Below are positions 884 to 18,187 of a stretch of 64,000 nucleotides of DNA, piece by piece (within the stretch, counting starts at the first letter, position 1; each line of letters begins with the position of its first letter). The notes under the pieces are model-generated. The model was not told the DNA's origin, ran no database searches, and was given only the letters and a program-made list of their open reading frames with translations. The DNA is from Pigmentiphaga kullae (GTDB taxonomy: Bacteria > Pseudomonadota > Gammaproteobacteria > Burkholderiales > Burkholderiaceae_B), in the NCBI RefSeq assembly GCF_004216695.1, contig NZ_SGXC01000001.1, forward strand, positions 1,860,001-1,924,000. Reading direction: 5' to 3'. The position numbers were made by a program, and so were the translations under genes.

Positions 884-965
884 AGCCCCTCCCGGCATAT
901 ATGGCCACGCGTGGGATAGCGCTGCACGACGGGGTGCCGGCATGCTTGCCGGCGGATTGTAGATC

Positions 966-2980: not shown

Positions 2981-4058
2981 GGCTGGGCTCCTTGCAAAGC
3001 ATGCGTTCGGCCTGGCGGATCACCTCCGAGGCCTTGATTCCGAGCGCGCACGGATGGCCGATCGGGCAGTCGGGGTAGGCGCAGGGCCGGCAGGCCACGT
3101 CATGCCAGAGCACCACGTGCCGCGTACGGTCGGCCGGCGCCCAGCGATGCACGTCGCTGCCGCTGGCGACCACCACACTGGGGGTGCGCATCGCCGCCGC
3201 CACATGCGAGACGCCGGTATCGTTGCAGATCAGCAGACGGCATCGTTCGAGCAGGGCCGCCAGTGTGCCCAGGTCCGTGCGGCCCGCCAGGTCGCGCAGC
3301 GGCGTACCGGCCAGGCGCGCGACCTGGCGTGTCAGCGCGCGTTCTTCGCCGCTTCCGGTCAAGGCCACGTCGAAGCCCGCCCGCGCGACCGCCGAGGCCA
3401 CGGCCGCATAGCGGTCCGCCGGCCAGCGGCGCGAGGACAGGCGGGCACCGGGGTGGACCAGTACCGTGCGGTCCGGCCGCAATCCTTCCCGCGCGGCCAA
3501 CCGGGCGGCCGCCTGCCTGTCTTCGTCCGCCAGCGGAAACTCCAGCGCGGCGTCCATGCAGGGAACGTCCAGGAAGCGCATCAGCGCCAGGTAGCGCTCG
3601 ACTTCCGGCAGACGATCGGGCCAGGGCAGCCACCAGGCATTGCGCTCGGAGCCGGGCGCCTGCCCGGGCTGGAAGCCGGCCAGGCGTGCGGCGCCCAGGC
3701 GGCGCACGATGTCGTTGGTCAGGCGGCCGCTGCCGTGCAATTGCAGGGCGACGTCGAAGCGCTGCGCCCTGGCCCGGTCGAAGAAGGCGGGCAGCGCCTC
3801 GGGGCGGGCAGGTTGTTCCGGCAGGCCCTCCAGTCCGGGAAAGGCGGCCAGTTCGTCGACATAGCGGGCGAAGCGCTGCTGGAACGCCCGCGCCCCCGCC
3901 AGGCCGACCAGGGTGATCCGGGCGTGGGGAAAGCGCGCGCGCAACGCCCGCAGGGCCGGCACGGCGCACAGCATGTCGCCCAGCTGCAGCGCGCGGAACA
4001 CGGCGATGCGGCGGGGTTCGGGTTGCCACAGCGGATGGACGTCCGGCGTGTCCGTCAT
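2973..4058 (-). CDS. GT9 family glycosyltransferase, ADP-heptose transferase-like
   Basis: 361 residues from ATG 4058, chosen because it makes an ATGA overlap with the upstream GT2 stop; a longer open frame upstream has no support. Family 9 features are the N-terminal FRALQLGDMLCAVPALRALR, the mid-protein VLVHPGARLSSRRWPADR and the ICNDTGVSHVAAAM donor-site motif. The C-terminus holds a Cys cluster ACRPCAYPDCPIGHPC, also typical of LPS heptosyltransferase II proteins and shared by the second GT9 at 6803-7927. It probably transfers heptose from ADP-heptose to a cytoplasmic acceptor. Which of the two GT9 enzymes acts first is unknown. Confidence 0.87.
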   Translation of the reverse strand: MTDTPDVHPLWQPEPRRIAVFRALQLGDMLCAVPALRALRARFPHARITLVGLAGARAFQQRFARYVDELAAFPGLEGLPEQPARPEALPAFFDRARAQRFDVALQLHGSGRLTNDIVRRLGAARLAGFQPGQAPGSERNAWWLPWPDRLPEVERYLALMRFLDVPCMDAALEFPLADEDRQAAARLAAREGLRPDRTVLVHPGARLSSRRWPADRYAAVASAVARAGFDVALTGSGEERALTRQVARLAGTPLRDLAGRTDLGTLAALLERCRLLICNDTGVSHVAAAMRTPSVVVASGSDVHRWAPADRTRHVVLWHDVACRPCAYPDCPIGHPCALGIKASEVIRQAERMLCKEPSHA

Positions 4059-5044
4059 AGGAATTTCGCCTTGAAATGCCACGCCCCGCGCAGCCGCCAG
4101 AACAGGGAAAGCGGAGGGATCAGGACCGAGGTGACCAGCATCTCGATCACGTGCGACGGTGCGAGCGACGCGCCGCGCAGCCGGACGAGGCAGAAGTGCA
4201 GAGTCAGGGCCGACCAGACCGCCAGCCCACCCCACGCCAGCAACGGAAGGCCGGCCGTGGCGCCCGCCAGGATGGCCAGCGCCGCCGCGACGATGGCGAA
4301 GTAGTTCCAGGGGGGGCGGCGGCGTATGCGCGACCGGTACAGCAGCGGATGCTTCTTGTAGAGCAGGGCGTCGAAGAACACCTTGCGCTGCTGGCCCACG
4401 CTGATGCCGACGGGCGCCGGCCTGACCGGATGCAGCACGACGGCGTCCTCGGCCCGCGCGATCCGGCGGCCGTGCGCCAGCAGCGTGAACTGCAGGTCGG
4501 AGTCCTCGCGCCAGGCCAGCGTGAACCGCTCGTCGAAGCCGCCCACGGCGACCAGCGCCCGCTTGCGCACCAGGCAGTTGGCGGTGGCGAACTCCGCGTG
4601 TTCCAGGCCGCCGGTATCCCGCTCATGGTCGCGCGGCCGGTCTGGCAGCGGCACGCGTATCCGGCCGACGACAGCATCGACGTCTTCCGTCATCGCGTCC
4701 AGGCCGCGGCGCAGCCAGGATGGCGTGGGAATCGTGTCGTCGTCGGTGAAGGCGATGATGGGGGCGCGCGCTTCTTCCCAGCCCCGGTTGCGTGCGCCGG
4801 AGGGGCCTTGCGTGCCTTCGGCTTCAAGGCAGCGCACGCTCAATCCGCGCGCGGCATGTTCCCGGGCCAGCGTTTCGACCACGCGGCGGGTCTCGCGATC
4901 CGGGCCGTCGTCGACCACCAGCAGCTCGAAACGCCGGGGATCGAGGTCCTGCCACGTCAGCGCCCGCAGGCAGCGTCGCAGCATGCGCGGCCGGCGATAG
5001 GTCGGCACGACTACCGAGACCAGCGGGGCCGGAAAGGTACTCAT
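4055..5044 (-). CDS. GT2 family glycosyltransferase with C-terminal membrane segments
   Basis: 329 residues from ATG 5044, which overlaps the carbamoyltransferase stop by four bases. The GT-A domain starts with VSVVVPTYRRP, has LLVVDDGPD, then the metal-binding AFTDDDT (DXD-like) near residues 98-104 and a WREDSDL segment typical of the catalytic base region. Two or more hydrophobic stretches follow residue 230 (YFAIVAAALAILAGA and the stretch ending in LTSVLIPPLSLFW), anchoring it to the inner membrane. It probably extends the glycan assembled by the neighbouring GT9 and GT4 enzymes. Donor specificity is not predictable here. Confidence 0.88.
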   Translation of the reverse strand: MSTFPAPLVSVVVPTYRRPRMLRRCLRALTWQDLDPRRFELLVVDDGPDRETRRVVETLAREHAARGLSVRCLEAEGTQGPSGARNRGWEEARAPIIAFTDDDTIPTPSWLRRGLDAMTEDVDAVVGRIRVPLPDRPRDHERDTGGLEHAEFATANCLVRKRALVAVGGFDERFTLAWREDSDLQFTLLAHGRRIARAEDAVVLHPVRPAPVGISVGQQRKVFFDALLYKKHPLLYRSRIRRRPPWNYFAIVAAALAILAGATAGLPLLAWGGLAVWSALTLHFCLVRLRGASLAPSHVIEMLVTSVLIPPLSLFWRLRGAWHFKAKFL

Positions 5045-6780
5045 GCCGATTTCTCCAACAGGAAGGAGCCGATGGCGAGTGCATCCAGCGGAGACGTCCA
5101 GAAGCATTCGATCGCATCGCGCGGCGTGCATACGACGGGTTCGCCCCGGGTATTGAAGGAGGTGTTCACCAGGACCGGCACGCCCGTGCGGCGTTCGAAC
5201 GCCGCAAGCAGGTCGTAGTACGCCGGATGCTGGTCGCGCCGAACCGTCTGCACCCGCGCGGTGCCGTCGGTGTGACGCACGGCAGGAATGCGATCGGCCT
5301 TGTCCGCCAGGACGTCGAAGACGAACAGCATGAAGGGCGCGACGATGGGGCCGGGGCGCGAAGTGGCGAACCAGTCGCGGGCGCGTTCTTCCATGACGAC
5401 CGGCGCCACCGGCCGGAAGTCTTCGCGGTCCTTGATCTCGTTGAGCCGGGACTGCATGCCCGGATCGATGGGCGAGGCCAGGATGGAGCGCGCGCCCAGG
5501 GCGCGCGGCCCGAATTCCATGCGGCCCTGGAACCATCCCACGATCCCGCCCCGCGCCAGCAGATCCGCCGTGGCTTCGGCAATGTCCGCCGGCCTGCGGT
5601 AGGACAGCTTCGAGCGTTGCAGGAAGGCCTCGATCTCATCGTCGCCGAATTCCGGTCCCAGGAATGCGTGCTCCATGACCCAGCGGCGGTCCTGTCCCGC
5701 GCGCTGCCGGCTGTCCACCCACAGCGCGGCGCCCAGCGAGGTGCCGGAGTCTCCCGCGGCCGGCTGCACCCATACCTCGCGGAAGGGGCCGCGCTCGCGC
5801 AGGCGCGCGTTCATGACACAGTTCAGCGCCACGCCGCCGGCCATGCAGAGGTTGGGCGAACCCGTCTCGCGATGCAGCCAGCGCGCCATGCGCTCCACCG
5901 TCTGCTCCAGCGCGAACTGCAAGGACCGGGCGAGATCGTAGTGATGCTTTTCCAGCGGGCCGCCCCGGCGCCGCGCCGGGCCGAAGCGCTGCGCCAGCGA
6001 CAGCGGCGACACGGTATAGCCGCCGTCGTCGCCCACACGCATGACCTCCTCGAAGAAATCCGCGTGGCGCGGTTCGCCGAAAGAGGCCAGGGCCATCACC
6101 TTGTATTCGTCGGAGGAATGCAGGAAGCCCAGGTGGCGGGTGACTTCCTCGTACAGCAGACCCAGCGAATGGGGAAGGTCGATCTGCTTGATGCGCCGGT
6201 AGGCGCCGCCGGCGTAGTGTCCGTAGCTGGTGGTGGCGCGCTCGCCCCGGCCGTCCATGGTCAGGACCGCCGCGTCGTCGAAGGGAGCGGCCAGGAACGC
6301 GCTGGCCTCGTGCGCCAGGTGATGCTCGACGAAATGCCAACGCCGCAGGATGTCGCCGGAGGTCGCTCCGCGCAAACGTTCCTGGAGATGATGCGGGGCG
6401 CCGTCGGCCAGTTGGCGGGGCGCGTTGACCACATACGACAGGAACAGCGGATCCCAGGGCGAAGTCGTCGCCGTGGGGCTGCCGCTGCGCGAGGGCTCCA
6501 GCGGCAGCAGGATGTGCCCATCCACGGCCTGTTCCTGCAACAGCAGGGACGGGTCGTACGAATAGGCGAAGTGGTCGACCTGCCGAAGGTCGATGCCGGC
6601 CTGTGCCAGGCAGTAGTCGATGGCGTGGAAAGGCAGTTGCCAGGTCGTGAACGGCACTGGCCGCTTGCCGTGCTTGACGTGGGTGAAACGCTCTTCTTCC
6701 GCCGCCGCCAGCACCACGCCGTCGCGGACCAGTGTCGCGGAACAGTCGTGGTAGACCGCGTTGATTCCCAGTGTGTACAT
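5041..6780 (-). CDS. NodU/CmcH/TobZ-type O-carbamoyltransferase
   Basis: 579 residues, the full length of this family. The N-terminal Kae1-like domain begins LGINAVYHDCSATL and contains EEERFTHVKHGKRP and the metal-binding EHHLAHEASAF (His-x3-His) near residues 153-163. The C-terminal YrdC-like part has GRMEFGPRALGARSILA, NEIKDREDFRPVAP and VLVNTSFNTRGEP, all hallmark stretches. Family members make carbamoyl-adenylate from carbamoyl phosphate and ATP, then pass the carbamoyl group to a sugar hydroxyl or similar. In this locus the acceptor is likely a heptose or another glycan residue, as known for carbamoylated heptose in pseudomonad LPS cores. It lies 22 bp after the upstream GT9 and is coupled to the GT2. 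Confidence 0.92.
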   Translation of the reverse strand: MYTLGINAVYHDCSATLVRDGVVLAAAEEERFTHVKHGKRPVPFTTWQLPFHAIDYCLAQAGIDLRQVDHFAYSYDPSLLLQEQAVDGHILLPLEPSRSGSPTATTSPWDPLFLSYVVNAPRQLADGAPHHLQERLRGATSGDILRRWHFVEHHLAHEASAFLAAPFDDAAVLTMDGRGERATTSYGHYAGGAYRRIKQIDLPHSLGLLYEEVTRHLGFLHSSDEYKVMALASFGEPRHADFFEEVMRVGDDGGYTVSPLSLAQRFGPARRRGGPLEKHHYDLARSLQFALEQTVERMARWLHRETGSPNLCMAGGVALNCVMNARLRERGPFREVWVQPAAGDSGTSLGAALWVDSRQRAGQDRRWVMEHAFLGPEFGDDEIEAFLQRSKLSYRRPADIAEATADLLARGGIVGWFQGRMEFGPRALGARSILASPIDPGMQSRLNEIKDREDFRPVAPVVMEERARDWFATSRPGPIVAPFMLFVFDVLADKADRIPAVRHTDGTARVQTVRRDQHPAYYDLLAAFERRTGVPVLVNTSFNTRGEPVVCTPRDAIECFWTSPLDALAIGSFLLEKSA

Positions 6781-6802: not shown

Positions 6803-7927
6803 TCAGGCGGCCTGCGTGGCGGCGCCTGAGCGGCGCCGCCAGGCCAGCAGTTCGTGCGCGGCCCGGACCACGGCGGCGGGGTCGACGCCCGCCAGGCAGG
6901 CGTGGTGGCCTTCCGGGCAGACGCTGCGATAGCAGTACTTGCAGGGCACGTCGCGGTTCAGCAGGCGGTGTTCGACGCCCCAGGGCGCGTGCTGGGGGTT
7001 GGTCAACGCATACAGGTCCGCTACCGGCGTGCCGACGGCCGCCGCCAGGTGCACCGGTCCGCTGTTGTTCGACACGAGCACCGCCGCTTCGGCCAGCAGC
7101 GCGCCCAGTTCCCCCAGGCTCAACGCACCCGCCATGTCGGTCGCGCGCCGGCCCGCCAGGACGTCGACGTGCTCGGCCAGCGGCCGTTCCCCGGTGTCTC
7201 CGGTCAGCACGACCGGAGCGGTGGCGGACAGTTCGCGGACCACCCGGGCGAACAGTTCGGGCGGATAGCGCCGGGACGGCGCGCTGGCGCCCGGGTGGAC
7301 CACGATGCAGGAGGCTGCGTCTGCAATGCCGCGGGCGGCGAGTTTTCCCCGCATCGATGCACGATCGGCCGGCCGCACGGCGAACTCCAGTCCCTCGGCC
7401 GCCGGGCGGGCACCGATCGACGCCACCAGGTCGAGCTGGCGCCGGGTCTCGTGGCGTCCGCCATCCATGGGGACATCGTCCTTCGTCCAGTCCGTAAGCA
7501 ACTGGTACGGGTTCTCGCGGGCATGGGCAAGCACGCGCGGGATGCCGGCCAGCCGGCACATCAGGGCGGCAGGCAGCGCGCTCTGGCTGTACACGGTAAA
7601 GATCGCCGCCGCGTCGAAGCCTCCGGCGCGCAACCGCTCGATCATGGCCAGGTCGGGGGCGGGATTGGCCGTCCGCAGGTTCTTCACCCACGGTGCCTCG
7701 TAGGCGATCGTCGCATCTACGCTGGGCAGGTGCGGGGCCAGCCGGGCGCCGGCGGGCGAGCATAGCAGCGTGACGCGCCGGCCGGCCGCCGACTGCTTCA
7801 GCGCGCGCAGCGCCGGCGTGGTCATCAGCACGTCGCCCAGGTTGTCCAGTCTGATGCAGAGCAGGTTCGCGGCCCGGTCCCAGCCCGTGTTCACCGGCAT
7901 GTCGTCCTGCCGCGCGGGGGCACTCAT
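6803..7927 (-). CDS. GT9 family glycosyltransferase, LPS heptosyltransferase-like
   Basis: 374 residues from ATG 7927, which overlaps the stop of the GmhB-like gene by four bases. The N-terminal LLCIRLDNLGDVLMTTPALRA is typical of WaaC/WaaF relatives. VVHPGASAPSRRYPPELF and VSNNSGPVHLAAAVGTPV mark the ADP-heptose site. The C-terminus has the Cys cluster PCKYCYRSVCPEGHHAC seen in heptosyltransferase II proteins. Being directly coupled to a heptose bisphosphatase homologue makes ADP-heptose the best guess for the donor. It is cytoplasmic or peripheral, with no signal or membrane segment. Confidence 0.9.
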   Translation of the reverse strand: MSAPARQDDMPVNTGWDRAANLLCIRLDNLGDVLMTTPALRALKQSAAGRRVTLLCSPAGARLAPHLPSVDATIAYEAPWVKNLRTANPAPDLAMIERLRAGGFDAAAIFTVYSQSALPAALMCRLAGIPRVLAHARENPYQLLTDWTKDDVPMDGGRHETRRQLDLVASIGARPAAEGLEFAVRPADRASMRGKLAARGIADAASCIVVHPGASAPSRRYPPELFARVVRELSATAPVVLTGDTGERPLAEHVDVLAGRRATDMAGALSLGELGALLAEAAVLVSNNSGPVHLAAAVGTPVADLYALTNPQHAPWGVEHRLLNRDVPCKYCYRSVCPEGHHACLAGVDPAAVVRAAHELLAWRRRSGAATQAA

Positions 7928-8505
7928 GCCACCTCCCTGGCGCGTAGCGCCACCGCCACGATGGTGGCCGCCTGTCCGAAGCCATCCACGACGTAGTCGG
8001 GCTCGCGGAACGGACCCCCCACCCATTCGGTTTCATGGCCGTTGTTCAGCAGCACGGTGCGGCAGCCCGCGCGGCGGCCGGCTTCCACGTCGTCCAGGAT
8101 GTCGCCGATGAACCAGGAGCGCTCCAGGTCCAGGTCCAGATCGCGCGCTGCCTGGCGCAGCAGCCCGGGTCGGGGTTTGCGGCAGGTGCAGGGCAGGGCA
8201 TAGGGACGGCGCACGCCGCGCGCCAGGTGGGGGCAGTAGTAGAACCCGTGCAGCCTCGCATGGGCGCCTTCGAACATGCGCGCCAGTTGCAGGTGCACGC
8301 CTATCAGCGCCTCTTCTTCGAAGAGTCCGAGCGCGACGCCGGGCTGGTTCGTGATGACGACCATGGGCGCGTTCGTGCCTCCGAGGCGCCGCAGGCCCGC
8401 TTCCACTCCCCGCTCGAAGCGCATCCGCGCCGGATCGACGTTGTAGGCGTCGTTCACCAGCAGCGTGCCGTCCTTGTCCAGGAATATCGCCGGTTTCAGG
8501 GCCAT
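7924..8505 (-). CDS. HAD-IIIA phosphatase, D,D-heptose 1,7-bisphosphate phosphatase (GmhB)-like
   Basis: 193 residues. Motif I is FLDKDGTLL with nucleophile and acid Asp10/Asp12; motif II is VITNQPG; motif III and IV are CRKPRPG and WFIGDILDDVEAG. Cys and His residues in CPHLARGVRRPYALPCTC form the zinc clip characteristic of GmhB. GmhB removes the 7-phosphate from heptose 1,7-bisphosphate in ADP-heptose synthesis. No gmhA or hldE is visible, so the rest of the pathway must be elsewhere, and this copy may be a dedicated paralogue. It overlaps the SDR by 10 bases and the GT9 by four. Confidence 0.9.
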   Translation of the reverse strand: MALKPAIFLDKDGTLLVNDAYNVDPARMRFERGVEAGLRRLGGTNAPMVVITNQPGVALGLFEEEALIGVHLQLARMFEGAHARLHGFYYCPHLARGVRRPYALPCTCRKPRPGLLRQAARDLDLDLERSWFIGDILDDVEAGRRAGCRTVLLNNGHETEWVGGPFREPDYVVDGFGQAATIVAVALRAREVA

Positions 8506-9227
8506 GACGTTTCTCGCATCGGCAGCACCATCACCTCGGGGATGACGGTTTCGTCGGGTTGCAGCAGGACGAAGCGCACGGTGCGCGCGACGTTGCCCGG
8601 GTCCTGGAGCGTGTCCGTGTCGATGTCGGGAAAGCGGTCCAGCAGGAAGGGCGTGCGCATGCCGCCGGCCACCACCGCCGAAACCTTGATGCCCTGGGGT
8701 CTAAGCTCGGCGTGCAGGGCGTGCGACAGGCCCAGGAGGCCCCACTTGGTTGCGTGGTAGACGGCGGCGTTGGGCCAGGCGCGCTTGGAGGCGGTCGAGG
8801 CGATGTTGACGATGTGTCCGTGTCCGCGCTGCTTCATGTGGGCGCAGGCATGCCGGGACACCAGAAAGGGCCCGGTCAGGTTGGTGCGCAGGATGCGGTC
8901 CCAGTCCGCCAGCCCCAGTTCGTCGATGGGTACGGTCAGGTCGATGGCGGCATTGTTGACCACCGCATCCAGGTGGCCGAAACGAGAGATGGCGCGGTCG
9001 ATGGCAGCCCGCACGTCGCTCTCGTTGCCCACGTCGAAGCCGATCGCATCGGTGTGCGCGCCGATGCGCCGGGCCATCGCATGCGCCTTGCCCTCGTCGA
9101 TGTCGCCGATCAGGACGTGGGCGCCGTCGGCCGCCAGTTCCTGGCAGATGGCCGCGCCCAGTCCCTGCCCCCCGCCTGTCACCAGTACCGTCCTGCCTGC
9201 CATGCTCGTGGGTGTCCGGGATGTCAT
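8496..9227 (-). CDS. short-chain dehydrogenase/reductase
   Basis: 243 residues from ATG 9227, preceded by a strong AAGGAG site. A classical SDR: NAD(P) motif TGGGQGLG near residues 18-25, NNAA near 94-97, catalytic Ser in IASTASK, and YHATK supplying Tyr and Lys near 155-159. An acidic residue after the second strand (GDIDEG) suggests NAD rather than NADP. It overlaps the GmhB-like gene by 10 bases, so its substrate is probably a sugar intermediate of the glycan, but the family is too broad to name one. Confidence 0.88.
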   Translation of the reverse strand: MTSRTPTSMAGRTVLVTGGGQGLGAAICQELAADGAHVLIGDIDEGKAHAMARRIGAHTDAIGFDVGNESDVRAAIDRAISRFGHLDAVVNNAAIDLTVPIDELGLADWDRILRTNLTGPFLVSRHACAHMKQRGHGHIVNIASTASKRAWPNAAVYHATKWGLLGLSHALHAELRPQGIKVSAVVAGGMRTPFLLDRFPDIDTDTLQDPGNVARTVRFVLLQPDETVIPEVMVLPMRETSWP

Positions 9228-9243
9228 GCTTTTCTCCTTGATG

Positions 9244-10536
9244 TCATTTGGCGGCCAAGGCGGCTTCGGCCATCGGTTCGCGCCGCGTGCGGCGGGGCAG
9301 GGCCGGGGCCTGGGCCAGGCCGGCATAGGCGCGCAGCATGTCGCGGGCAACGAAGTTCCAGGTGAACAGCTTCTGCGCGCGCCGCAGGCCGTTGCGGCCC
9401 AGCCGCCTGGCTGTCTGCTCGTGCCGGGCCAGGAAGGCCAGGCGTTCGGCCAGCGCCTCGGGATCGCGCGGCGGGACGAGATAGCCGGTCTTGCCGTCGA
9501 TCACGGTGGACCGTATGCCGCCCACCGCCGCGCCCACGACGGGCCTGGCGCAGGCCATGGCCTCGACCGGCGTGATGCCGAAGGGCTCGTACCAGGGCGT
9601 GGTGACGAACACGTCGCACGCGCCGTAGAACAGCGCCAGGCGATCGCGGTCGCATCGTCCGCAGAAGGACACCGCCTCGCCTACGCCTTCCTCGTGCGCG
9701 ATGCCGCGCAGCCGTCCCAGTTCCGGCGTGGCCAGGTCGTCGGGCCGCGCCGCGTCGCCGCCCACCACGCACAGGACGGCATCCACGCCATGGCGGCGAC
9801 GCAGGACGGCCAGCGCGCGTATGACGTTGTCCACGCCCTTGCGCGGCACCATGCGGCCCAGCTGCAGCAGCGTGAATTTCTCCGGGCTCCATCCCAGCGC
9901 CACGCGGGCGGCGGCCCGGTCCATGGGCGCGAGTTCGTCGGCATCGAAGCCGCAGGGAATGATGTCTATCTTCGCGGGGTCGGCGGCATAGTGCTCGACC
10001 AGGTCCTCGAGGTCCTGCGGGCATTCGGCGATCAGCTTCTCGGCCCGGCGAACCAGTTCCAGCTCGATGGCGTAGCGTTCCGCGGGAAACCGGTCCGCGC
10101 TGCCCTGGTGCTTGCGGCGCACGCGGTCCAGCGCGTGGAAAGTCATGACCAGCGGCACGCCGAATTCGCGCGTGACCGGCAGGGCCGCCAGGCCCGACAT
10201 GAAGAAGTTGGCATGGACGACGTCGTAGATCGGCCAGTTGTTGCGAAAGTAGTGAAGCAGGAATTCCGAGAAGTGCCCCATGTAGGGCAGCAGCGATTCC
10301 TTGGCAATCGGGCGCGCGGGGCCGGCGGGAACATGGATGACCCGCACGCCCGGCTGCCAGGCCAGCGTGCGGGGCAGCGAAGGGTCGTCCAGGCGGGTGA
10401 AGACGTCGACCCGGTTGCCCTGGGCGGCAAGCTCGCGCGCCAGGTGCGCGACATAGATGTTCTGGCCGCCGCTGTCCACGCTGCCGGGGGGCGCCAGCGG
10501 GGATGCATGTTCACTGACGAGGGCGATGGTGCGCAT
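9244..10536 (-). CDS. GT4 family glycosyltransferase (MshA/sucrose-synthase-like)
   Basis: 430 residues. ATG 10536 is preferred over a longer frame because VSEHASPLAPPGSVDSGGQN is the expected N-terminus of this group, where the GGQN turn binds the acceptor; AAAGGGACATCACC precedes it. The C-terminal half contains LQLGRMVPRKGVD and EPFGITPVEAMACARPVVG, the EX7E donor-binding motif near residues 317-335. It is 16 bp upstream of the SDR and probably the first gene of the heptose/carbamoyl sub-operon, since a 146-bp gap separates it from the gene before. The donor is unknown; relatives use UDP-GlcNAc, UDP-glucose or GDP-mannose. Confidence 0.88.
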   Translation of the reverse strand: MRTIALVSEHASPLAPPGSVDSGGQNIYVAHLARELAAQGNRVDVFTRLDDPSLPRTLAWQPGVRVIHVPAGPARPIAKESLLPYMGHFSEFLLHYFRNNWPIYDVVHANFFMSGLAALPVTREFGVPLVMTFHALDRVRRKHQGSADRFPAERYAIELELVRRAEKLIAECPQDLEDLVEHYAADPAKIDIIPCGFDADELAPMDRAAARVALGWSPEKFTLLQLGRMVPRKGVDNVIRALAVLRRRHGVDAVLCVVGGDAARPDDLATPELGRLRGIAHEEGVGEAVSFCGRCDRDRLALFYGACDVFVTTPWYEPFGITPVEAMACARPVVGAAVGGIRSTVIDGKTGYLVPPRDPEALAERLAFLARHEQTARRLGRNGLRRAQKLFTWNFVARDMLRAYAGLAQAPALPRRTRREPMAEAALAAK

Positions 10537-10682
10537 GGTGATGTCCCTTTCGTTGATCAGCACAACTACGGGGACAGGCACCGCATCTTCCGTTCCCGGC
10601 CCGAGAAGCGGCTCCAGTCTCCATGGGCTTTCCGGCCACACCAGTAAGGCCTACACGAGCGTGAACTTCTTGCCGACGTTTC

Positions 10683-11201
10683 CTACAGGACCAGTCCGCG
10701 GGACTCCGACAGTGCCCGGCCCTTGACGATCGCCCGCAGGCAGGCGGCAACGGTCATCGCGAAGGCCTCGTCGTACCAGGGGTTGGCGCCGCTGGACGCG
10801 ACCACGTAGCCGTCCAGGCACGCGGTGCCCCACAGCGTGGAGTCGGTTTCCCGCAGCAGTTGCGGATACGCGGTCTGCACGAGGTGGCTTTCGATACCCG
10901 TACGCCAGCTGATCCGGGCCTTGCCGCGCGCGAAGGCGGCGTAGTCGGCATCCCACTGCTGCGGGTCGCCGACGGCGTGTTCGTAGAGAATGGCCTCCTC
11001 GAACTGGTCCCGGCCGGGGGAACTGGCCGGATCCATGATGACGAGATACAGGAAGCCGCTTTCGCCGACGCGGGTGTCGCGCATCGCGGCCTCGATCATC
11101 GGCAGCGCCATGCGGACAGCCTGTGCGGCCGCTTGCCTGTCCGCGTAGAAGCTGGGCGCGGACACCGTGGAGGCCGAGGCAAGAAAGGGATTGCCGTTCA
11201 T
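10683..11201 (-). CDS. conserved hypothetical protein of unknown function
   Basis: 172 residues, with AAGGAGTCTTCCC placed well before ATG 11201, so expression is likely. There is no signal peptide or membrane span. The C-terminal half, with TLWGTACLDGYVVASSGANP and YDEAFAMTVAACLRAI, is faintly reminiscent of GlcG/HbpS-like small sensor or haem-binding proteins, but the match is too weak for a name. It lies 34 bp after the ABC-receiver fusion on the same strand, so the two are probably co-transcribed, and it might work with that protein's regulatory half. Confidence 0.72.
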   Translation of the reverse strand: MNGNPFLASASTVSAPSFYADRQAAAQAVRMALPMIEAAMRDTRVGESGFLYLVIMDPASSPGRDQFEEAILYEHAVGDPQQWDADYAAFARGKARISWRTGIESHLVQTAYPQLLRETDSTLWGTACLDGYVVASSGANPWYDEAFAMTVAACLRAIVKGRALSESRGLVL

Positions 11202-11235
11202 GGGAAGACTCCTTGGTGGTGGGAATGGGGGGGGC

Positions 11236-13950
11236 TCAGGCGGTCGGACCCGGGCCGGGGCGCGTGTGGTCGCGCACCAGCGTGGCGACCGTGGCGGCCA
11301 GTTCGTCGGGGTCCACCGGCTTGGCCAGGTGCACCTGGAAACCCGCCAGCAGCGCGCGCATGCGGTCCATGGGCTGGGTGCGGCCGGTCAACGCGACCGC
11401 CGGCATGAGGTCGGGCAGCGAGACCGAACGCCGGGATTCCAGGCTCCGGATCTCCTGCAGCACTTGATGGCCGTCTTCGTCGCCCAGCGACAGGTCGCAC
11501 AGCAGCACGTCCGGCCACTGCTCCGACGGGGTGCGTTCCAGGTAGGACAGGGCGGCATGGCCGGAGTCCATGGGCAGCACCTTCGCCCGATAGGTTTCCA
11601 GCACGGCGCCGATCTGCTCCAGGACTTCGGCCTGGTCGTCCACGGCCATCACGCTGATGCCGTCCAGCGACACCGCGCCCGCCTTGCCGTGTGCGGGCGG
11701 AGCTTCTTCGGCCACCGCGCGCAGCGGCAGGCTGAGCACCCGCGTCTCGCCCCGGCCCGTGCGCACCGCGTGTGTCGTCAGCTTGCCGCCCTGGCCCTCG
11801 ACCACGGCCCGGATGTGCATGGGATCGAACACCGTCGAACCGTCCGGCGACACGGGGGGCGGCACGGAGCCGTGCTCCAGCGCGACGATGGCCTCGTCGT
11901 CGCGGCCGTCGGTGACGGACAACCGCGCATTGCCGTCGGTCGTGTCCAGCCGCAGTTCCATGCGGCCGCCGGGCGGACTGACGGCGATGGCGTTCATGCA
12001 GAGTTCGGATACGACTTGCTGCAAAGTGCTGGGGTCGCCGGTGACCCGATATGGGTGCGACCCCATGAAGGTGTAGAGCTCGATGGCGCGCTCCTCGATC
12101 AACGGCCGCAGCCCGTCCAGCACGCTGGCCACCAGCGCCACCATGTTGACGGGCTGACGGCTGAGCTGGCGGCTGGTGCGCTCCAGTTCGCTCTGCTTGA
12201 GCTGCAGGTTCCACATCTGGGCGTACATGCCCTGGCTGGCCAGCAGCGCTTCATGCGTGCCGCGCTCGACGATGCGGCCCTGGTCCAGCACCAGGATCTC
12301 GTCGGCATCGACCACGGTGGACAGCCGATGCGCGATGATCAGCGTGGTCCGGTCGCGCGACAACTGCGCGAGCTCGGTCTGGATGGCGCGCTCGGCCATG
12401 GTGTCCAGCGCCGAGGTGGCCTCGTCGAAGATGAGGATGGGCGGGTTCTTCAGGATGGCGCGGGCAATGGCGATGCGCTGGCGTTCGCCGCCGGACAGCT
12501 TGACGCCGCGTTCGCCCACCATCGTGTCGTACTGCGCGGGCAGGGCGTTGATGAACTCGTGGATGCGCGCCGCCCGCGCCGCTTCGATGATCTCCGCCAT
12601 CGAAGCGCCGGGCCGACCGTAGGCGATGTTGTACGCCACGGTTTCGTTGAACAGCGCCGTGTCCTGCGGCACCATGCCGATGTGGGCGCGCAGGCTCTTC
12701 TGGTCGATGGACGCGAGGTCCTGGCCGTCGATGGTGATGCGGCCGGCGTCCGGTTCGTAGAAGCGGAACAGCAGCCGGGCCAGCGTCGACTTGCCCGAGC
12801 CGCTGCCGCCCACCACGGCCACCGTGGCGCCGGGATCAATCCGGAAGTCCACGTTCCAGAGTATCTGCCGGCCAGGTTCGTAGCCGAAGTCGACCGAGTC
12901 GAACCGGACCTCGCCCCGCTTGAAATCCAGCGGCGGCAATTGGCGCGCCTCGTCCGTCTCGGGTGGGGTGTCGAGCAGCGCGAACAGGCGCTCGGCGTTG
13001 ATGACGGCATCCTTGGACTGGCGGAACACCATGCCCAGCGTATTGAGCGGCAGGCTGATCTGGATGATGTAGGCGTTGACCAGGACCAGGCTGCCTACGG
13101 TCATGTGGTCCAGGACCACCTCGCGGCCGGCCAGCAGCATGACCGAGGCCACGCCCATCGCGATGATGGCGCTCTGGCCGACATGCAGCACGGACAGCGC
13201 CTGCTGGTTGGCCACGCCCGCTTCGCGCCATCGTTCCAGCAGCTTGCGAAAGCGCACCAGTTCGTAGCGTTCGTTGGTGTAGAACTTGACCGTCTCGTAG
13301 TTCAGCAGCGTATCGACCAGACGCCCGCTGGTGGCGGAATCCGCGACGTTCATCTCGCGTTGCAGCGCCGCGCGGCGCTCGGTCAGCGCGAAGGTGAAGA
13401 TGCTGTAGCCCAGCAGCGCCAGCGCCACGATGACGGTGAACCAGATGTCGTAGCCGATCGCCAGGACGACGGCGACCACGCCGATCTCGAACAGCGTCGG
13501 CACGACGGTGAACAAGGTGGTGCCGAGCAGGAAGGTGATGCCGGCCGATCCGCGGTCCACGTCGCGTGCCAGCGACCCCGTCTGGCGCGCGACGTGGAAG
13601 CGCGGACCCAGGCGGTGCAGGTGCGCGAAGGTGCGTTCGTTGAAGCCGGCCACGATTTCGTGCAGCACCGGCGAGAACACCACGTCGCGCAGTTCGTTGA
13701 ACAGGGTGCCCAGGAAGCGCAACAGCGCGTAGGCCAGCAGCAGGAAGACGGGCAGCACCAGCGGATGAGCGGGTTGGCTCAGTTCGTCCACGACGCTCTT
13801 GAGCAGCATGGGAACCGCCACCATGACCAGCTTGGCCAGGATGAGCAGCGCCAACGCCGCGAATACGCGCCGCCGCGCCACCCAGAGGGGCGGACCCAGC
13901 GTGCGTGCGAGCTGCTGGCTGAGGGGCTTGGCGCTCGTGGCCTGGGCCAT
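11236..13950 (-). CDS. Atm1/HMT1-like ABC exporter fused to degenerate HATPase and receiver domains
   Basis: 904 residues from ATG 13950, chosen for GGGAG ten bases upstream; an in-frame ATG at 14010 lacks a ribosome site. Residues 25-315 are a six-helix ABC exporter membrane domain. The nucleotide-binding domain has Walker A GGSGSGKST near 379, signature LSGGERQ near 485 and Walker B ILIFDEATSALD near 505, all intact; ALFNETVAYNIAYGRP resembles Atm1/HMT1 exporters. From about 590 to 735 comes a histidine-kinase-type ATPase fold with N-box VVSELCMNAIAVSPPGG, but the G boxes look eroded and no His-containing dimerisation domain is present. Residues 766-885 are a receiver with VDD, phospho-acceptor LLCDLSL, ALTGR and AKPV all in place. 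The normal family is about 600 residues. It sits inside a glycan locus, so export of a glycan precursor is possible; Atm1-type thiol export is the alternative. Confidence 0.9.
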   Translation of the reverse strand: MAQATSAKPLSQQLARTLGPPLWVARRRVFAALALLILAKLVMVAVPMLLKSVVDELSQPAHPLVLPVFLLLAYALLRFLGTLFNELRDVVFSPVLHEIVAGFNERTFAHLHRLGPRFHVARQTGSLARDVDRGSAGITFLLGTTLFTVVPTLFEIGVVAVVLAIGYDIWFTVIVALALLGYSIFTFALTERRAALQREMNVADSATSGRLVDTLLNYETVKFYTNERYELVRFRKLLERWREAGVANQQALSVLHVGQSAIIAMGVASVMLLAGREVVLDHMTVGSLVLVNAYIIQISLPLNTLGMVFRQSKDAVINAERLFALLDTPPETDEARQLPPLDFKRGEVRFDSVDFGYEPGRQILWNVDFRIDPGATVAVVGGSGSGKSTLARLLFRFYEPDAGRITIDGQDLASIDQKSLRAHIGMVPQDTALFNETVAYNIAYGRPGASMAEIIEAARAARIHEFINALPAQYDTMVGERGVKLSGGERQRIAIARAILKNPPILIFDEATSALDTMAERAIQTELAQLSRDRTTLIIAHRLSTVVDADEILVLDQGRIVERGTHEALLASQGMYAQMWNLQLKQSELERTSRQLSRQPVNMVALVASVLDGLRPLIEERAIELYTFMGSHPYRVTGDPSTLQQVVSELCMNAIAVSPPGGRMELRLDTTDGNARLSVTDGRDDEAIVALEHGSVPPPVSPDGSTVFDPMHIRAVVEGQGGKLTTHAVRTGRGETRVLSLPLRAVAEEAPPAHGKAGAVSLDGISVMAVDDQAEVLEQIGAVLETYRAKVLPMDSGHAALSYLERTPSEQWPDVLLCDLSLGDEDGHQVLQEIRSLESRRSVSLPDLMPAVALTGRTQPMDRMRALLAGFQVHLAKPVDPDELAATVATLVRDHTRPGPGPTA

Positions 13951-14028
13951 GGACGACGGACTCCCGTGACGGCGCGGTCGCGCCGGAACGCGGCCCACAG
14001 CAATATGCATACCCGGGATGCGGCAGCG

Positions 14029-14958
14029 CTAGCGTTCGCGCGAGGATGGCGCCGAGCGCCGGCCGGGCGGCGGCACGGGGCTGCCCCCTGCCTCCATGCC
14101 GCGCGCCAGGGTCCGCCGCATGGCCAGCACCCGGGGCGGAACGACGCGGCGTTGGCCGGGAATCCACCGCAGTCCGCCCAGCGCCGACACGGCGACGGCA
14201 AGCCGATCCGTGCCCCGCAGGCCGCTTAGGATGCGCAGGGTTTCCCGGCCGGCCTCGGCCAGGGGCAGGCGCAGCCACGCCGTCCAGATCTCGTTGCGGG
14301 CCAGCAAGCGGCGCCGCAGCGGGGTATCGCGCCTGGGCGAGGGCTGGTGGCGGGTGACGATGCGCGGGCAATAGACCATGCGCCAGCCGGCGGCGGCGAA
14401 GTCCAGGGCCATCAATGCTTCTTCGGCTCCGATGAAGAAGGCGGGATGGTAGCCCCCGGTCTCCAGGAAGGCGCAGGCCCGCATGACGGCGGCGCCGGCT
14501 AGGAAGCCGAGCAGGGCCTTGCCCGGCAGCCCGCGCGAAGGCAGCGGGCTGCGCGCCATGCGCTCGCAGGCGGGATCGGGACGTTCTTCGGCGCGCACCC
14601 GTACTTGCGCGCACAACACGGCGATGTCGGGGTGGCGGTCCAGGAGGTCAGCGGCCAGGTCCAGCGAGTGCGGCTGCCAGCAGGTGTCGTCGTCGCAGAA
14701 GGCCACGTAGGGCGTGCGGGTCCATTGCACGCCCAGATTGCGGCCGGCGGCGCCCAGGTTGCCGCCCGCCTCGATCACGTGCAGGTCCGGAAAGGCTGCG
14801 CGCAGCGCGTCCGCGGTGCCGTCGCGGCTGCCGTTGTCCACCACGCACAGCCGGACCCGGTCGGGCAGCGCGCTCAGTCCGCCGACCGTGCGCAGCACTT
14901 CGTCGCGCCGGTCATGAGTCAGGACGACGATGGTGACGCGGGGTTCAGCCGGTGCCAT
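14029..14958 (-). CDS. GT2 family glycosyltransferase
   Basis: 309 residues from ATG 14958, overlapping the end of the PIG-L gene by 14 bases; an upstream in-frame ATG at 15003 would lie deeper inside that gene. The GT-A core reads VTIVVLTHDRRDEV, CVVDNGSRDGT and VAFCDDDTCWQP, giving the DXD metal site near residue 90, and NLGAAGRNLGVQ binds the nucleotide. A charged Arg/Pro-rich tail of about 40 residues follows the catalytic domain. It was probably co-transferred with the PIG-L deacetylase and may act on the same sugar. No membrane anchor is obvious. Confidence 0.87.
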   Translation of the reverse strand: MAPAEPRVTIVVLTHDRRDEVLRTVGGLSALPDRVRLCVVDNGSRDGTADALRAAFPDLHVIEAGGNLGAAGRNLGVQWTRTPYVAFCDDDTCWQPHSLDLAADLLDRHPDIAVLCAQVRVRAEERPDPACERMARSPLPSRGLPGKALLGFLAGAAVMRACAFLETGGYHPAFFIGAEEALMALDFAAAGWRMVYCPRIVTRHQPSPRRDTPLRRRLLARNEIWTAWLRLPLAEAGRETLRILSGLRGTDRLAVAVSALGGLRWIPGQRRVVPPRVLAMRRTLARGMEAGGSPVPPPGRRSAPSSRER

Positions 14959-15619
14959 GGCGCGCCAGCCTCCATAGGCGTTCGGGCAGATCCGTATCCT
15001 CATGGCCGCCTTCGCCGAAGGCGCGCAACTGGCTCGCGTAGGCGCGCACAGCGCGCGCTTTCAAGCCGCGGGCCGGCGGCGCGATGGCGGGCGTCAGCCG
15101 CCAGCCCGAGCGCAGCAGCGAGGCCAGCCGTTCCTGCAGCAGGCCGGGAAGGCGGCGGTACAACGCGTCTTCGTAGCATAGCCAGTCCAGGTCCGGATAC
15201 CGCGCGTGCATGCGCAGGCACGCCTCGTGGACGACGAGGTGGTCGGAGTGGAAAAGGCCCATCGGCACGGCCACCATGCCGCCGCGCTGGCGCTCCAGGC
15301 AGGGGGCGAGTCGTTCTTCGATGTCTTCGGGCCGATAGTCGCCCCCGTACTGCGCATCGAGCAGGTCCAGCCACACCGGCCTGGCGCCCAGCATCGCCAG
15401 CGCCGCGACATCCTCGGCGCGGCGGGCACGCATGGCTTGTTCCGCGTCCAGGAAACCGCATCGGCGGTCCCAGTCGGTCAGGCAGGAGTCCGTGGGCGTT
15501 CCGGCGAAAACGGTGACGACCGTGGCGCCGGGCGTGCGCTCGAGCAGCTCGCCGCAACTGAAGACGGCATCGTCCAGATGGGGGGACACGATGATCGGGG
15601 CAGGTGGTGAATGGCTCAT
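14945..15619 (-). CDS. PIG-L/LmbE family deacetylase
   Basis: 224 residues. The zinc motif HLDD (SPHLDDAVFSCGEL) lies near residues 14-17 and the second ligand region is FHSDHLVVHEA near 125-135. The family removes acetyl from N-acetylglucosaminyl groups or related sugars, for instance in mycothiol, bacillithiol and glycopeptide biosynthesis. AAGG lies nine bases before ATG 15619. It is the first gene of the leftward glycan unit and diverges from UDP-glucose dehydrogenase across a 110-bp promoter region. It probably deacetylates an amino sugar placed by a neighbouring transferase. Confidence 0.9.
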   Translation of the reverse strand: MSHSPPAPIIVSPHLDDAVFSCGELLERTPGATVVTVFAGTPTDSCLTDWDRRCGFLDAEQAMRARRAEDVAALAMLGARPVWLDLLDAQYGGDYRPEDIEERLAPCLERQRGGMVAVPMGLFHSDHLVVHEACLRMHARYPDLDWLCYEDALYRRLPGLLQERLASLLRSGWRLTPAIAPPARGLKARAVRAYASQLRAFGEGGHEDTDLPERLWRLARHGTG

Positions 15620-15684
15620 GGCGGCTACCTTGCCACCGGCCGGGCGGAACAGGTGTAACGAGATTGAGACCCGCGCCAGGGGAA

Positions 15685-15709
15685 CGGATCTTGCTGGATG
15701 GAAGATCCG
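15685..15709. promoter_or_regulatory. inverted repeat between PIG-L gene and ugd
   Basis: CGGATCTT and AAGATCCG form a perfect eight-base inverted repeat with a nine-base spacer. It is centred 33 bp before the ugd start codon and 78 bp before the divergent PIG-L start, so it could be an operator for both units or a leader hairpin. No regulator is assigned to it. Confidence 0.4.
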
Positions 15710-15729
15710 ACATTCACAGGGAGCAGGCC

Positions 15730-17097
15730 ATGAATCTCGCCGTCATCGGTGCCGGCTACGTAGGACTCGTGACCGGCGCATGCCTGGCCGACGTGGGCAA
15801 CCGGGTGCACTGCGTCGACCGCGACGCCGCCCGGCTGCATCAGCTCCGGGGCGGCCATCTGCCCATCTACGAGCCCGGGCTCGATGCGCTGGCCGCGCGC
15901 AACGCGTCCTCGGGCCGGCTGGTGTTCACCGATGACCTGCCGGGCGCCGTGGCCGACGCCGATGCGGTATTCATCGCGGTGGGCACGCCCTCGCGCGAGG
16001 ACGGGGCGGCGGACATCGGCCAGGTGCTGCAGGCTGCCGCGGACATCGCGCGTTCGGCCACGCGCGACCTGCTGGTGGTGGTCAAGTCCACCGTGCCGGT
16101 GGGGACCTGCGACCGTGTGCGCGAAGTCGTCGAGGCGGAACTGGCCCGCCGCGGCGCCCCGTGCGAACTGAGGGTGGCCTCCAATCCGGAGTTCCTGAAG
16201 GAAGGGCATGCGGTCGAGGATTTCCAGCGTCCCGACCGCATCGTCATCGGCACCTCCGACGACGATGACTGCGCCTTGCTGCGTACCCTCTACGCGCCCT
16301 ACAACCGCAACCACGACCGGCTCATCTGCATGGACATCCGGTCCGCCGAGTTCACCAAGTACGCCTCGAACGCGATGCTGGCGGCCCGGATCTCGCTGAT
16401 GAACGAGCTGGCCTGCCTGGCCGAGAAGGTGGACGCCGACATCGAGTCGGTACGCCGTGGCACCGGCTCGGATCCGCGCATCGGCTATGACTTCCTGTAT
16501 GCCGGGGCCGGCTACGGCGGGTCCTGCCTGCCCAAGGACGTGCGCGCGTTGATACGCCTGGCCGACGAGTACGGCGCGGCGGCCGACATACTGGGCAGCG
16601 TGCAAGCGGTCAACCTGCGCCAACGGGCCCTGCTGTACGAGAAGATCGACCGCTTCTTCCGCGGCAGGCTGGCCGGCCGTCGCATCGCGGTATGGGGCCT
16701 GGCCTTCAAGCCGGCCACCGACGACATTCGCGAGGCGCCGTCCATCGACCTGATCGGGCGCCTGCTGCGCGCCGGCGCCACGGTGCGAGGCTACGACCCC
16801 GTCGCCGGCGCCAATGCGCTGCGGGTCCTGGGGCAGGATGGGTTCTCCATCGCGGACGATGCCCGGGCCGCGTGCCAGGGGGCCGATGCGCTGGTGGTGA
16901 TGACCGAATGGCGCGAATTCAAGTCGCCGGATTTCCGCGGCCTGGCCCGGGCCCTGCGCGCGCGGGCCGTTTTCGACGCCCGCAATCTGTACGATCCCGG
17001 CTACGTACGATCCTGCGGCCTGCACTATGAAGGCGTGGGACGGGCCGGCGGCCATCCGGCGCATCGGCCTTCGCCCGTCCCGGCCGCCGTGCGCTAG
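15730..17097 (+). CDS. ugd: UDP-glucose 6-dehydrogenase
   Basis: 455 residues from ATG 15730, preceded by AGGGAGC; the open frame extends upstream but without a site. It oxidises UDP-glucose to UDP-glucuronate with two NAD. The N-terminal Rossmann motif is VIGAGYVGL, the central helix carries EFTKYASNAMLA, and catalytic Cys266 lies in GYGGSCLPKD. The C-terminal domain has FKPATDDIREAPS. The extra 15-20 residues after the core are Arg/Pro-rich and of no obvious role. Its product would feed the UXS-like decarboxylase at 966-1982. Its stop codon overlaps that of the convergent Mn-catalase gene. Confidence 0.95.
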   Translation: MNLAVIGAGYVGLVTGACLADVGNRVHCVDRDAARLHQLRGGHLPIYEPGLDALAARNASSGRLVFTDDLPGAVADADAVFIAVGTPSREDGAADIGQVLQAAADIARSATRDLLVVVKSTVPVGTCDRVREVVEAELARRGAPCELRVASNPEFLKEGHAVEDFQRPDRIVIGTSDDDDCALLRTLYAPYNRNHDRLICMDIRSAEFTKYASNAMLAARISLMNELACLAEKVDADIESVRRGTGSDPRIGYDFLYAGAGYGGSCLPKDVRALIRLADEYGAAADILGSVQAVNLRQRALLYEKIDRFFRGRLAGRRIAVWGLAFKPATDDIREAPSIDLIGRLLRAGATVRGYDPVAGANALRVLGQDGFSIADDARAACQGADALVVMTEWREFKSPDFRGLARALRARAVFDARNLYDPGYVRSCGLHYEGVGRAGGHPAHRPSPVPAAVR

Positions 17098-17972: not shown

Positions 17973-18030
17973 GAAGATCTCCTTGAGGAACGAACGCTTC
18001 GCCCCGCAGGAATCGTTCCCATGCCGCCTA

Positions 18031-18044
18031 CCGGGATATCCCGG
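18031..18044. promoter_or_regulatory. palindrome upstream of Mn catalase
   Basis: CCGGGATATCCCGG is a perfect 14-base palindrome 59 bp before the catalase start and 144 bp before the divergent chemoreceptor start. Its size and position fit a dimeric repressor or activator site. No regulator is identified. Confidence 0.35.
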
Positions 18045-18187
18045 ATGCGCCGGCCCGTCATCCTCCAGCAAAAAATGCTCAACTCCCGCCCCCCGCTGCC
18101 GTAAACACGGAAACGCCCGCCACGCGAAGGGCACGTGTGCGCACGAAACGACCGGCACGAGCCGGCAACAACGGTTTGGGGTAAAGA

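What the first reader, a model, noticed from the sequence alone, without database searches (positions are those of the whole stretch)
11236..13950. ABC exporter fused to a kinase-like ATPase and a receiver domain
A complete ABC exporter (membrane domain plus intact Walker A, signature and Walker B) continues in the same frame into a histidine-kinase-type ATPase fold, then a receiver with all key residues (VDD, LLCDLSL, ALTGR, AKPV). No phospho-His domain is present and the G boxes look eroded. A transporter with its own phosphorylation input would be a new way to gate export by two-component signalling. It sits in a glycan locus whose far end encodes a sensor kinase.
Basis: partly seen in the sequence, partly recalled or inferred. 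Interest (0 to 1): 0.78.

Follow-up and report, generated by a model that had tools for sequence, protein, structure and literature searches.

The report
ABC exporter fused to pseudokinase and receiver
A bacterial export pump carries, as part of the same protein, a broken kinase piece and an intact phosphorylation switch, and it occurs together with one sugar-polymer pathway, so export of something made there may be switched by the cell's signalling kinases.

Summary
Window 11239-13950 (minus strand) encodes 904 residues: an ATM1-clade ABC exporter, then a histidine-kinase-type ATPase domain without phospho-histidine part and G boxes, then an intact receiver. It is no artefact: 41 of 268 family genomes match at E<=1e-200 and one more was found later. 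In 57 non-redundant copies the phospho-aspartate and T/S are kept in 57, the lysine in 56, DxGxG in none. Selection is purifying in every domain. A tree of ABC parts gives one origin (support 89); three unfused sisters lie among similar glycan genes. All 42 fusion genomes found also have the cluster's carbamoyltransferase; 5 genomes have that enzyme without the fusion. Two of eight glutathione-site residues of Atm transporters are switched across the clade. Best reading: the transporter is the output and the receiver its phosphorylation input, with a pseudokinase spacer. Phosphorylation, gating and substrate are untested. Against it: no kinase neighbour is conserved across the family, and one genome (Solimonas aquatica) has the tail as a separate gene without the pump. 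In four genomes of the window's genus a kinase without receiver ends the same gene run. New variant of a known kind.

The parts
11236..13950 (-). ABC exporter - pseudo-CA - receiver fusion, 904 aa plus stop
   Evidence: full-length homologues
13048..13863 (-). ABC exporter membrane domain (residues 30-301); the Atm-type TM6 stretch is residues 301-310
12412..12855 (-). Nucleotide-binding domain (residues 366-513); Walker A, signature and Walker B intact, H-loop at residue 541
11707..12153 (-). Degenerate histidine-kinase-type ATPase (CA) domain, residues about 600-748; no H-box, no DxGxG
11287..11652 (-). Receiver domain, residues 767-888; D771/D772, phospho-acceptor D819, T855, K877
10683..11201 (-). 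172-aa conserved protein of no family found, co-occurring with the fusion
9244..10641 (-). Glycosyltransferase (GT4 type)
   Evidence: neighbour in other loci
8496..9350 (-). Short-chain dehydrogenase (ORF limits; match begins about residue 50)
6803..8026 (-). Heptosyltransferase-like glycosyltransferase (GT9)
5041..6780 (-). Carbamoyltransferase; present in all 42 fusion genomes found in the family
4055..5536 (-). Glycosyltransferase GT2 (ORF limits; match begins about residue 171)
2973..4235 (-). Second GT9
1979..2980 (-). Glycosyltransferase group 1
966..1982 (-). NAD-dependent epimerase/dehydratase; the annotated Paraburkholderia cluster has a UDP-glucuronate decarboxylase beside it
1..994 (-). 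Sensor histidine kinase RsbRD_N-HisKA-HATPase_c, 406 aa, runs about 224 bases beyond the window; no receiver domain by Pfam
14029..15003 (-). Glycosyltransferase GT2, upstream of the fusion
14945..15619 (-). PIG-L family deacetylase
15604..17097 (+). UDP-glucose/GDP-mannose dehydrogenase family protein

Best explanation
This is a dedicated ABC exporter of the ATM1 clade that serves a carbamoylated, probably heptose-containing glycan pathway and carries its own two-component input. The C-terminal tail of a hybrid histidine kinase (CA domain plus receiver, without the phospho-histidine part) was fused once to the end of the nucleotide-binding domain. The CA part then lost its ATP-binding boxes and is now a spacer or adaptor. 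The receiver is kept ready for phosphorylation on D819 by a kinase acting in trans (in the window's lineage perhaps the receiver-less kinase at the end of the same gene run). ABC exporters of this type work as dimers (established for the family), and the tail hangs on the C-terminal end of the NBDs, so phosphorylation should change how the two tails pair and so favour or block NBD closure. Shown: domains, conservation, one origin as the simplest history, association with the glycan genes. Inferred: phosphorylation, direction of control, partner kinase, substrate.
For: Receiver chemistry is kept while kinase chemistry is lost: acid pair Asp 55 (plus 2 Glu) and 56 of 57, acceptor Asp 57, T/S 57, Lys 56 of 57, against N-box Asn 17, DxGxG 0 and H-box 0 of 57. 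ABC motifs are intact in 57 of 57 apart from one Walker A Ser replaced by Arg and one gap at the Q-loop. dN/dS 0.016-0.317 in all four parts in the 11 close pairs I chose. One origin on the ABC tree (34 fusions, SH-aLRT 89), sister to three unfused proteins, together apart from 41 AtmA-like rows at 100; on a tail tree 18 kinases form one side of a branch at 99. The unfused sisters sit among glycan genes of the same families, so the exporter probably belonged to such a pathway before the fusion. All 42 fusion genomes found have the carbamoyltransferase, Fisher 7e-44 by genome; by genus 15 of 15, 3e-8; it is over 20 kb away or on another contig in 10. Of 45 named fusion loci 34 have at least two glycan-cluster genes in the stretch, against 0 of 32 control loci after removal of L129, a probable cut fusion. 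The C-terminal model has helices and strands in an order that I read as CA-like, then five beta-alpha units (mean pLDDT 77.8). A same-strand kinase without receiver in 4 genomes of the genus.
Against: The tail can stand alone: in Solimonas aquatica (L124) it is a separate gene with no fusion-clade exporter in the genome, so it may have work apart from the pump. No kinase is a conserved neighbour: 7 of 45 named loci have one within about 8 kb, against about 5 expected from one HATPase_c match per 127 kb in the window's own genome; 6 of 24 further unnamed 20-kb stretches, some of them the same places, have one. The operon kinase was found in 4 of the 7 fusion genomes of the genus; in G004 the stretch searched lacks it, and in G001 and G006 only the surroundings of the fusion were searched. 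Extensive glycan clusters occur without this exporter (G242, G208, two in G087), so the pathway does not strictly need it. No full-length structure was obtained, so packing of the receiver on the NBD is unknown. In G001 and G006 the fusion lies 175 kb from the carbamoyltransferase and the 172-aa companion was not found.
Confidence: 0.47

Rival explanations
1. The tail is a scaffold or phosphate sink: the receiver exchanges phosphate with a kinase to tune that kinase's main regulator, or positions the pump near a kinase, and does not gate transport.
For: A lone tail without the pump exists in Solimonas aquatica. The tail evolves faster than the NBD: dN/dS of the middle part is higher in 9 of 11 pairs and of the receiver in 10 of 11. 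The middle domain has no catalytic boxes left.
Against: The receiver is present in the fusions that are complete: 40 of 41 alignments run to residue 884 or beyond and the 41st (G165) ends with its contig. One lone tail among 78 loci of the scan; it groups loosely with a fused tail, as if the pump part was lost.
Confidence: 0.23
2. The fusion works in the other direction: the transporter senses its substrate and the tail passes that on, as in transporter-kinase fusions such as CbrA and CrbS.
For: Transporter-kinase fusions are known in which a symporter domain is joined to a kinase (abstract starts seen in the listing).
Against: No H-box and no DxGxG in 57 of 57, so the tail should not autophosphorylate. 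NBD motifs intact, so it looks like a working pump.
Confidence: 0.08
3. The receiver no longer does phosphorylation signalling; it and the CA part form a stable dimerisation module with residues kept for folding.
For: Rare changes occur at key positions: Gly in place of one acid (L056), Arg for Lys (L043), Glu for Asp in two.
Against: Acceptor Asp and T/S are kept in 57 of 57 while the neighbouring CA lost its boxes.
Confidence: 0.15
4. It is an ordinary ATM1 transporter for glutathione compounds that happens to have a tail, with the glycan link a by-product of inheritance as an island.
For: 53 percent identity to the AtmA-like paralogue of the same genome; TM6 stretch with P301, L302, G306 and R310 kept.
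Against: Two of eight glutathione-site residues are changed (Gln at 197 in 32 of 34 fusions, His at 256 in 33 of 34, both in 3 of 3 unfused sisters; AtmA-like rows keep Arg in 40 and Asn in 41 of 41). Carbamoyltransferase in 42 of 42 even though unlinked in 10.
Confidence: 0.15

Closest known systems
ATM1/ABCB7-type exporters (NaAtm1, AtAtm3)
   Same: Nearest structures by sequence: 7n58 (plant Atm, 511 bits) and 4mrn (NaAtm1, 508 bits) over the ABC part; TM6 stretch PLNTLGMVFR against PLNFLGSVYR of AtAtm3 (PMC9000953 passage).
   Different: Two changes in the glutathione site across the clade, residence among glycan genes, and a tail of some 310 residues that unfused relatives lack.
Hybrid histidine kinases (CA-receiver ends)
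   Same: The tail aligns in order with CA plus receiver of hybrid kinases; best in the own genome E 4.2e-26, whose domain order was checked.
   Different: No phospho-histidine domain, no ATP-binding boxes; the N-terminal partner is a pump.
SLC5/STAC transporter-kinases (CbrA, CrbS)
   Same: A transporter domain and two-component domains in one chain (abstract starts in the listing).
   Different: There a kinase core is present; here none is left and the receiver most likely acts on the transporter.
Rv1747 with PknF
   Same: An ABC transporter with forkhead-associated domains, in an operon with a kinase that modulates it (abstract starts in the listing).
   Different: FHA domains and Ser/Thr kinase there; receiver and Asp phosphorylation here.

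Membership tests
ABC exporter (ABCB-like) | Membrane domain plus Walker A, signature, Walker B, H-loop | tested here: met
   Pfam in 32 of 32; motifs in 57 of 57 with one Walker A Ser replaced and one Q-loop gap
ATM1/ABCB7 group | Closest to Atm proteins by sequence | tested here: met
   Best PDB matches are Atm proteins; own AtmA-like paralogue 53 percent
ATM1/ABCB7 group | Eight glutathione-site residues named in PMC9000953 | tested here: not met
   6 of 8 kept; positions of R328 and N387 are mostly Gln and His
Receiver domain | Acid pair, phospho-acceptor Asp, T/S, Lys | tested here: met
   55 (plus 2 Glu), 56, 57, 57, 56 of 57; five beta-alpha units in the model
Receiver domain | Is phosphorylated on the Asp | not testable with these tools
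   needs protein
Histidine kinase | H-box phospho-histidine | tested here: not met
   0 of 57 by pattern
Histidine kinase | ATP-binding boxes (G1 DxGxG; G2) | tested here: not met
   DxGxG 0 of 57; a loose G2 pattern hit 2 of 57, the one seen in context (L042) lies by the last strand and looks like chance
HATPase_c homology | Profile similarity to kinase CA domains | tested here: met
   hhalign 99.9, E 1.9e-35; HMM 44 of 45; Pfam E<=0.01 in 27 of 32
Transporter-kinase fusion (CbrA type) | Kinase core behind the transporter | tested here: not met

The most novel reading that the evidence does not exclude
The first exporter that is itself the output domain of a two-component system: a phosphorylated receiver, attached through a dead kinase domain, sets the pumping rate of a glycan-pathway exporter quickly and without transcription, in many Burkholderiales.
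Probability: 0.38. Interest if true: 0.82.

Novelty: new variant of a known kind. Interest (0 to 1): 0.62.

Why it matters
Two-component systems usually act through transcription, enzymes or the flagellar motor. A pump that carries its own receiver would let bacteria switch export directly and would give a single-protein system for asking how receivers drive large machines and what a pseudokinase domain does between them. It also points to an uncharacterised carbamoyl-glycan gene cluster, shared by many Burkholderiales, with a dedicated exporter and a 172-residue companion of no family found here.

Tried and rejected
Sequencing artefact or chance fusion: rejected by full-length copies in many genomes. 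Tail as a separate gene: first thought absent; on rechecking the 33 non-ABC loci I found one, L124, and corrected the report. Those 33 are 29 kinases with an H-box, L127 and L158 with DxGxG only, L124 the lone tail, and L129, a frame cut by the contig start with 172-aa protein, GT4, SDR and HAD beside it, probably one more fusion; it was the single control locus with glycan genes. A pump-part remnant near L124: no hit of the ABC part there, and the best ABC matches in that genome are 27-40 percent identical. Unfused sisters: they end 8-26 residues after the point where the fusions go on, and the kinase HMM found nothing in their stretches. A kinase as conserved neighbour: not supported. A link to the Burkholderia low-oxygen (lxa) locus, suggested by stress-type neighbours: passages of PMC6127331, PMC8305402 and PMC3759415 showed no such cluster, dropped. 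A known family for the 172-aa companion: no PDB match, and in Pfam one of six members touched QslA at E 0.034, taken as chance. Print: searches in the open PMC subset listed no paper on such a fusion in the titles and abstract starts shown; lists were cut at 10-15 papers and subscription papers are not covered. One search read several loci on the wrong strand; redone. Antisense ORF 11167-14229 (+) is taken as a shadow of the real gene.
Full report
WHAT IS THERE. The frame 13950-11239 on the minus strand encodes 904 residues. Pfam finds an ABC exporter membrane domain (30-301), an NBD (366-513), a partial HATPase_c (638-682, below cut-off) and a receiver (767-888). The nearest structures of the ABC part are Atm1-type exporters (511 and 508 bits). 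The NCBIfam models shown (best 25 of 244) are all below their cut-offs. The window's genus is taken to be Pigmentiphaga, because contigs of same-genus genomes have the same lengths as named Pigmentiphaga contigs; this is inference.

THE MIDDLE DOMAIN. A profile of residues 590-748 from the 57-sequence alignment against a profile of 30 DHp-CA regions (29 from kinases and the window's kinase) aligns 153 columns at probability 99.9 and E 1.9e-35, starting in the CA linker after the phospho-histidine helices. An HMM of the same 30 hits it in 44 of 45 named fusions, Pfam HATPase_c in 27 of 32 at E<=0.01. In the window's own genome the tail matches kinases colinearly over CA plus receiver, best E 4.2e-26 (two of them checked). 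In 57 non-redundant fusions no H-box and no DxGxG is found, and the N-box Asn is left in 17. The C-terminal AlphaFold model (325 residues, 25 sequences, mean pLDDT 77.8, pTM 0.47) shows alternating helices and strands that I read as a CA fold with a poorly modelled lid (residues 115-126 below 50), then five beta-alpha units. The pTM is modest, so the placing of the two domains is not to be trusted, and no fold search could be run.

THE RECEIVER. Acid pair Asp 55 (plus 2 Glu) and 56 of 57, acceptor Asp 57, T/S 57, Lys 56 of 57. dN/dS by domain in 11 close pairs that I chose, not all independent: membrane 0.026-0.166, NBD 0.016-0.132, linker plus CA 0.047-0.317, receiver 0.032-0.216. The middle part exceeds the NBD in 9 of 11 pairs, the receiver in 10 of 11. 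All parts are under purifying selection, the tail less than the NBD.

DISTRIBUTION. Forty-one of 268 family genomes match at E<=1e-200, in 15 of 43 genera; 40 of these alignments run to residue 884 or beyond, and the 41st (G165) stops at 751 because its contig ends soon after. A 42nd genome (G220) turned up when six discrepant genomes were searched with the tail, so the count may be low. In an even sample of the order at least 7 of 399 genomes have full-length matches (capped list) and in the phylum 3 of 398 at 1e-205. The scan of named genomes gave 78 loci: 45 ABC fusions (44 by motif, plus L091, whose Walker A has Arg), 31 kinase-like loci, one probable cut fusion (L129) and one lone tail (L124). 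Named carriers include Pigmentiphaga, Bordetella, Achromobacter, Pollutimonas, Rhizobacter, Methylibium, Hydrogenophaga, Comamonas, Azoarcus and Solimonas soli. Seven large replicons filed as plasmids, from Caballeronia, Paraburkholderia, Burkholderia and Cupriavidus, carry it; five are annotated there, just as ABC proteins (neighbourhoods of two).

ORIGIN. In a quick tree of 78 ABC parts (30 of the 57 fusions plus 4 more), the 34 fusions form one side of a branch (SH-aLRT 89, below the 95 star), sister to three unfused proteins (99), and these 37 are apart from 41 AtmA-like rows (100). One gain of the tail is the simplest history. The three unfused sisters stop 8-26 residues further on than the common end and have GT4, SDR or GT9, and in two cases HAD genes of the same families beside them; no carbamoyltransferase was among the called genes there.

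THE LONE TAIL. In Solimonas aquatica (L124:7941-8870, up to 309 aa) pseudo-CA and receiver stand without a pump; that genome's ABC matches are at most 40 percent identical and its tail match is this gene. On a tail tree it falls beside the fused tail of Solimonas soli (47 percent identity; set support 84, not starred), while 18 kinases form one side of a branch at 99. Loss of the pump part is the likelier history, but the tail seems able to persist alone, which counts for the scaffold or sink reading; I lowered the main odds from 0.50 to 0.47 and the novel case from 0.40 to 0.38 for it.

CONTEXT AND ASSOCIATION. In the window the same strand carries PIG-L, GT2, fusion, a 172-aa protein, GT4, SDR, GT9, carbamoyltransferase, GT2, GT9, GT1, an epimerase and a kinase. 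Of 45 named fusion loci 34 have at least two and 40 at least one of nine glycan-cluster gene types in the fetched stretch; five have none, two of them on short contigs (L089, L091). Of 33 non-fusion loci one had any, and that is L129, the probable cut fusion; without it 0 of 32. All 42 fusion genomes have the carbamoyltransferase at 1e-150; 5 more have it without fusion; Fisher 7e-44 by genome and 3e-8 by genus; in 10 of 42 the genes are over 20 kb apart or on different contigs. The genome test ignores shared descent, which is why the genus count is given. The five were searched again: G087 and G208 hold only unfused relatives at 50-51 percent, G242, G167 and G251 nothing at 1e-120; the last two genomes are incomplete. 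G242, G208 and G087 (two clusters) hold extensive clusters without the exporter. So the exporter goes with the pathway, not the reverse. The 172-aa protein occurs in 41 genomes, 39 of them with the fusion; exceptions are G001, G006, G219 (fusion alone) and G115, G242 (protein alone); it is unlinked in 8.

SUBSTRATE SITE. PMC9000953 (passages read) names T317, R324, R328, N387, Q390, L433, G437 and R441 of AtAtm3 as conserved glutathione-site residues. By the alignment these are T186, R193, Q197, H256, Q259, L302, G306 and R310. Gln at 197 is found in 32 of 34 fusions and 3 of 3 unfused sisters where AtmA-like rows have Arg in 40 of 41; His at 256 in 33 of 34 and 3 of 3 where they have Asn in 41 of 41. 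The change thus came before the tail. A shift away from glutathione disulfide is likely; a glycan or glycolipid substrate is inferred from context only.

PHOSPHATE SOURCE. The window's kinase (RsbRD_N, HisKA, HATPase_c; no receiver by Pfam) follows the epimerase on the same strand, and by the ORF list the next likely gene is on the other strand. It is kept in G000, G007, G002 and G008. Elsewhere kinases are near the fusion in 7 of 45 named loci, about the chance level by my estimate, and in 6 of 24 unnamed stretches that partly repeat them. Most members must use unlinked kinases, if any.

MECHANISM. Shown: a pump with intact ATPase motifs, a degenerate CA part, an intact receiver, common descent and pathway association. 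Inferred: that the receiver is phosphorylated in trans and that this alters NBD pairing. Passages of PMC6424863 describe C-terminal interleaving helices in a model of an Atm relative; the tail is attached at that place, which makes control of NBD closure plausible.

VERDICT. A real, conserved and, as far as can tell, undescribed architecture, new as a combination, made of known parts. Gating by phosphorylation is the leading idea and directly testable.

Noticed in passing
window 10683-11201 (-): A 172-aa protein with no Pfam or PDB family; 39 of the 41 genomes that have it (of 268) also have the fusion, in 8 of them unlinked.
   Followed up: partly
L124:7941-8870 (+): A lone pseudo-CA plus receiver gene in Solimonas aquatica, without the exporter.
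   Followed up: partly
window 5041-6780 (-) and L223, L225, L226, L227: A carbamoyltransferase-GT9-HAD-SDR-GT4 glycan cluster that also exists without the exporter; product unknown.
   Followed up: partly
L008, L009, L122, L144: A subgroup of fusions whose middle domain has diverged furthest while the receiver keeps its key residues; in L144 the kinase HMM no longer sees the middle domain.
   Followed up: partly
L212, L117, L090, L214, L216: Some fusion loci lie next to BON-domain, PRC-barrel-like or other stress-type genes (read from sequence and from annotation).
   Followed up: no
window 17094-18158 (-) and 18188-20221 (+): Manganese catalase and a Cache-type chemoreceptor beside the glycan locus.
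   Followed up: no
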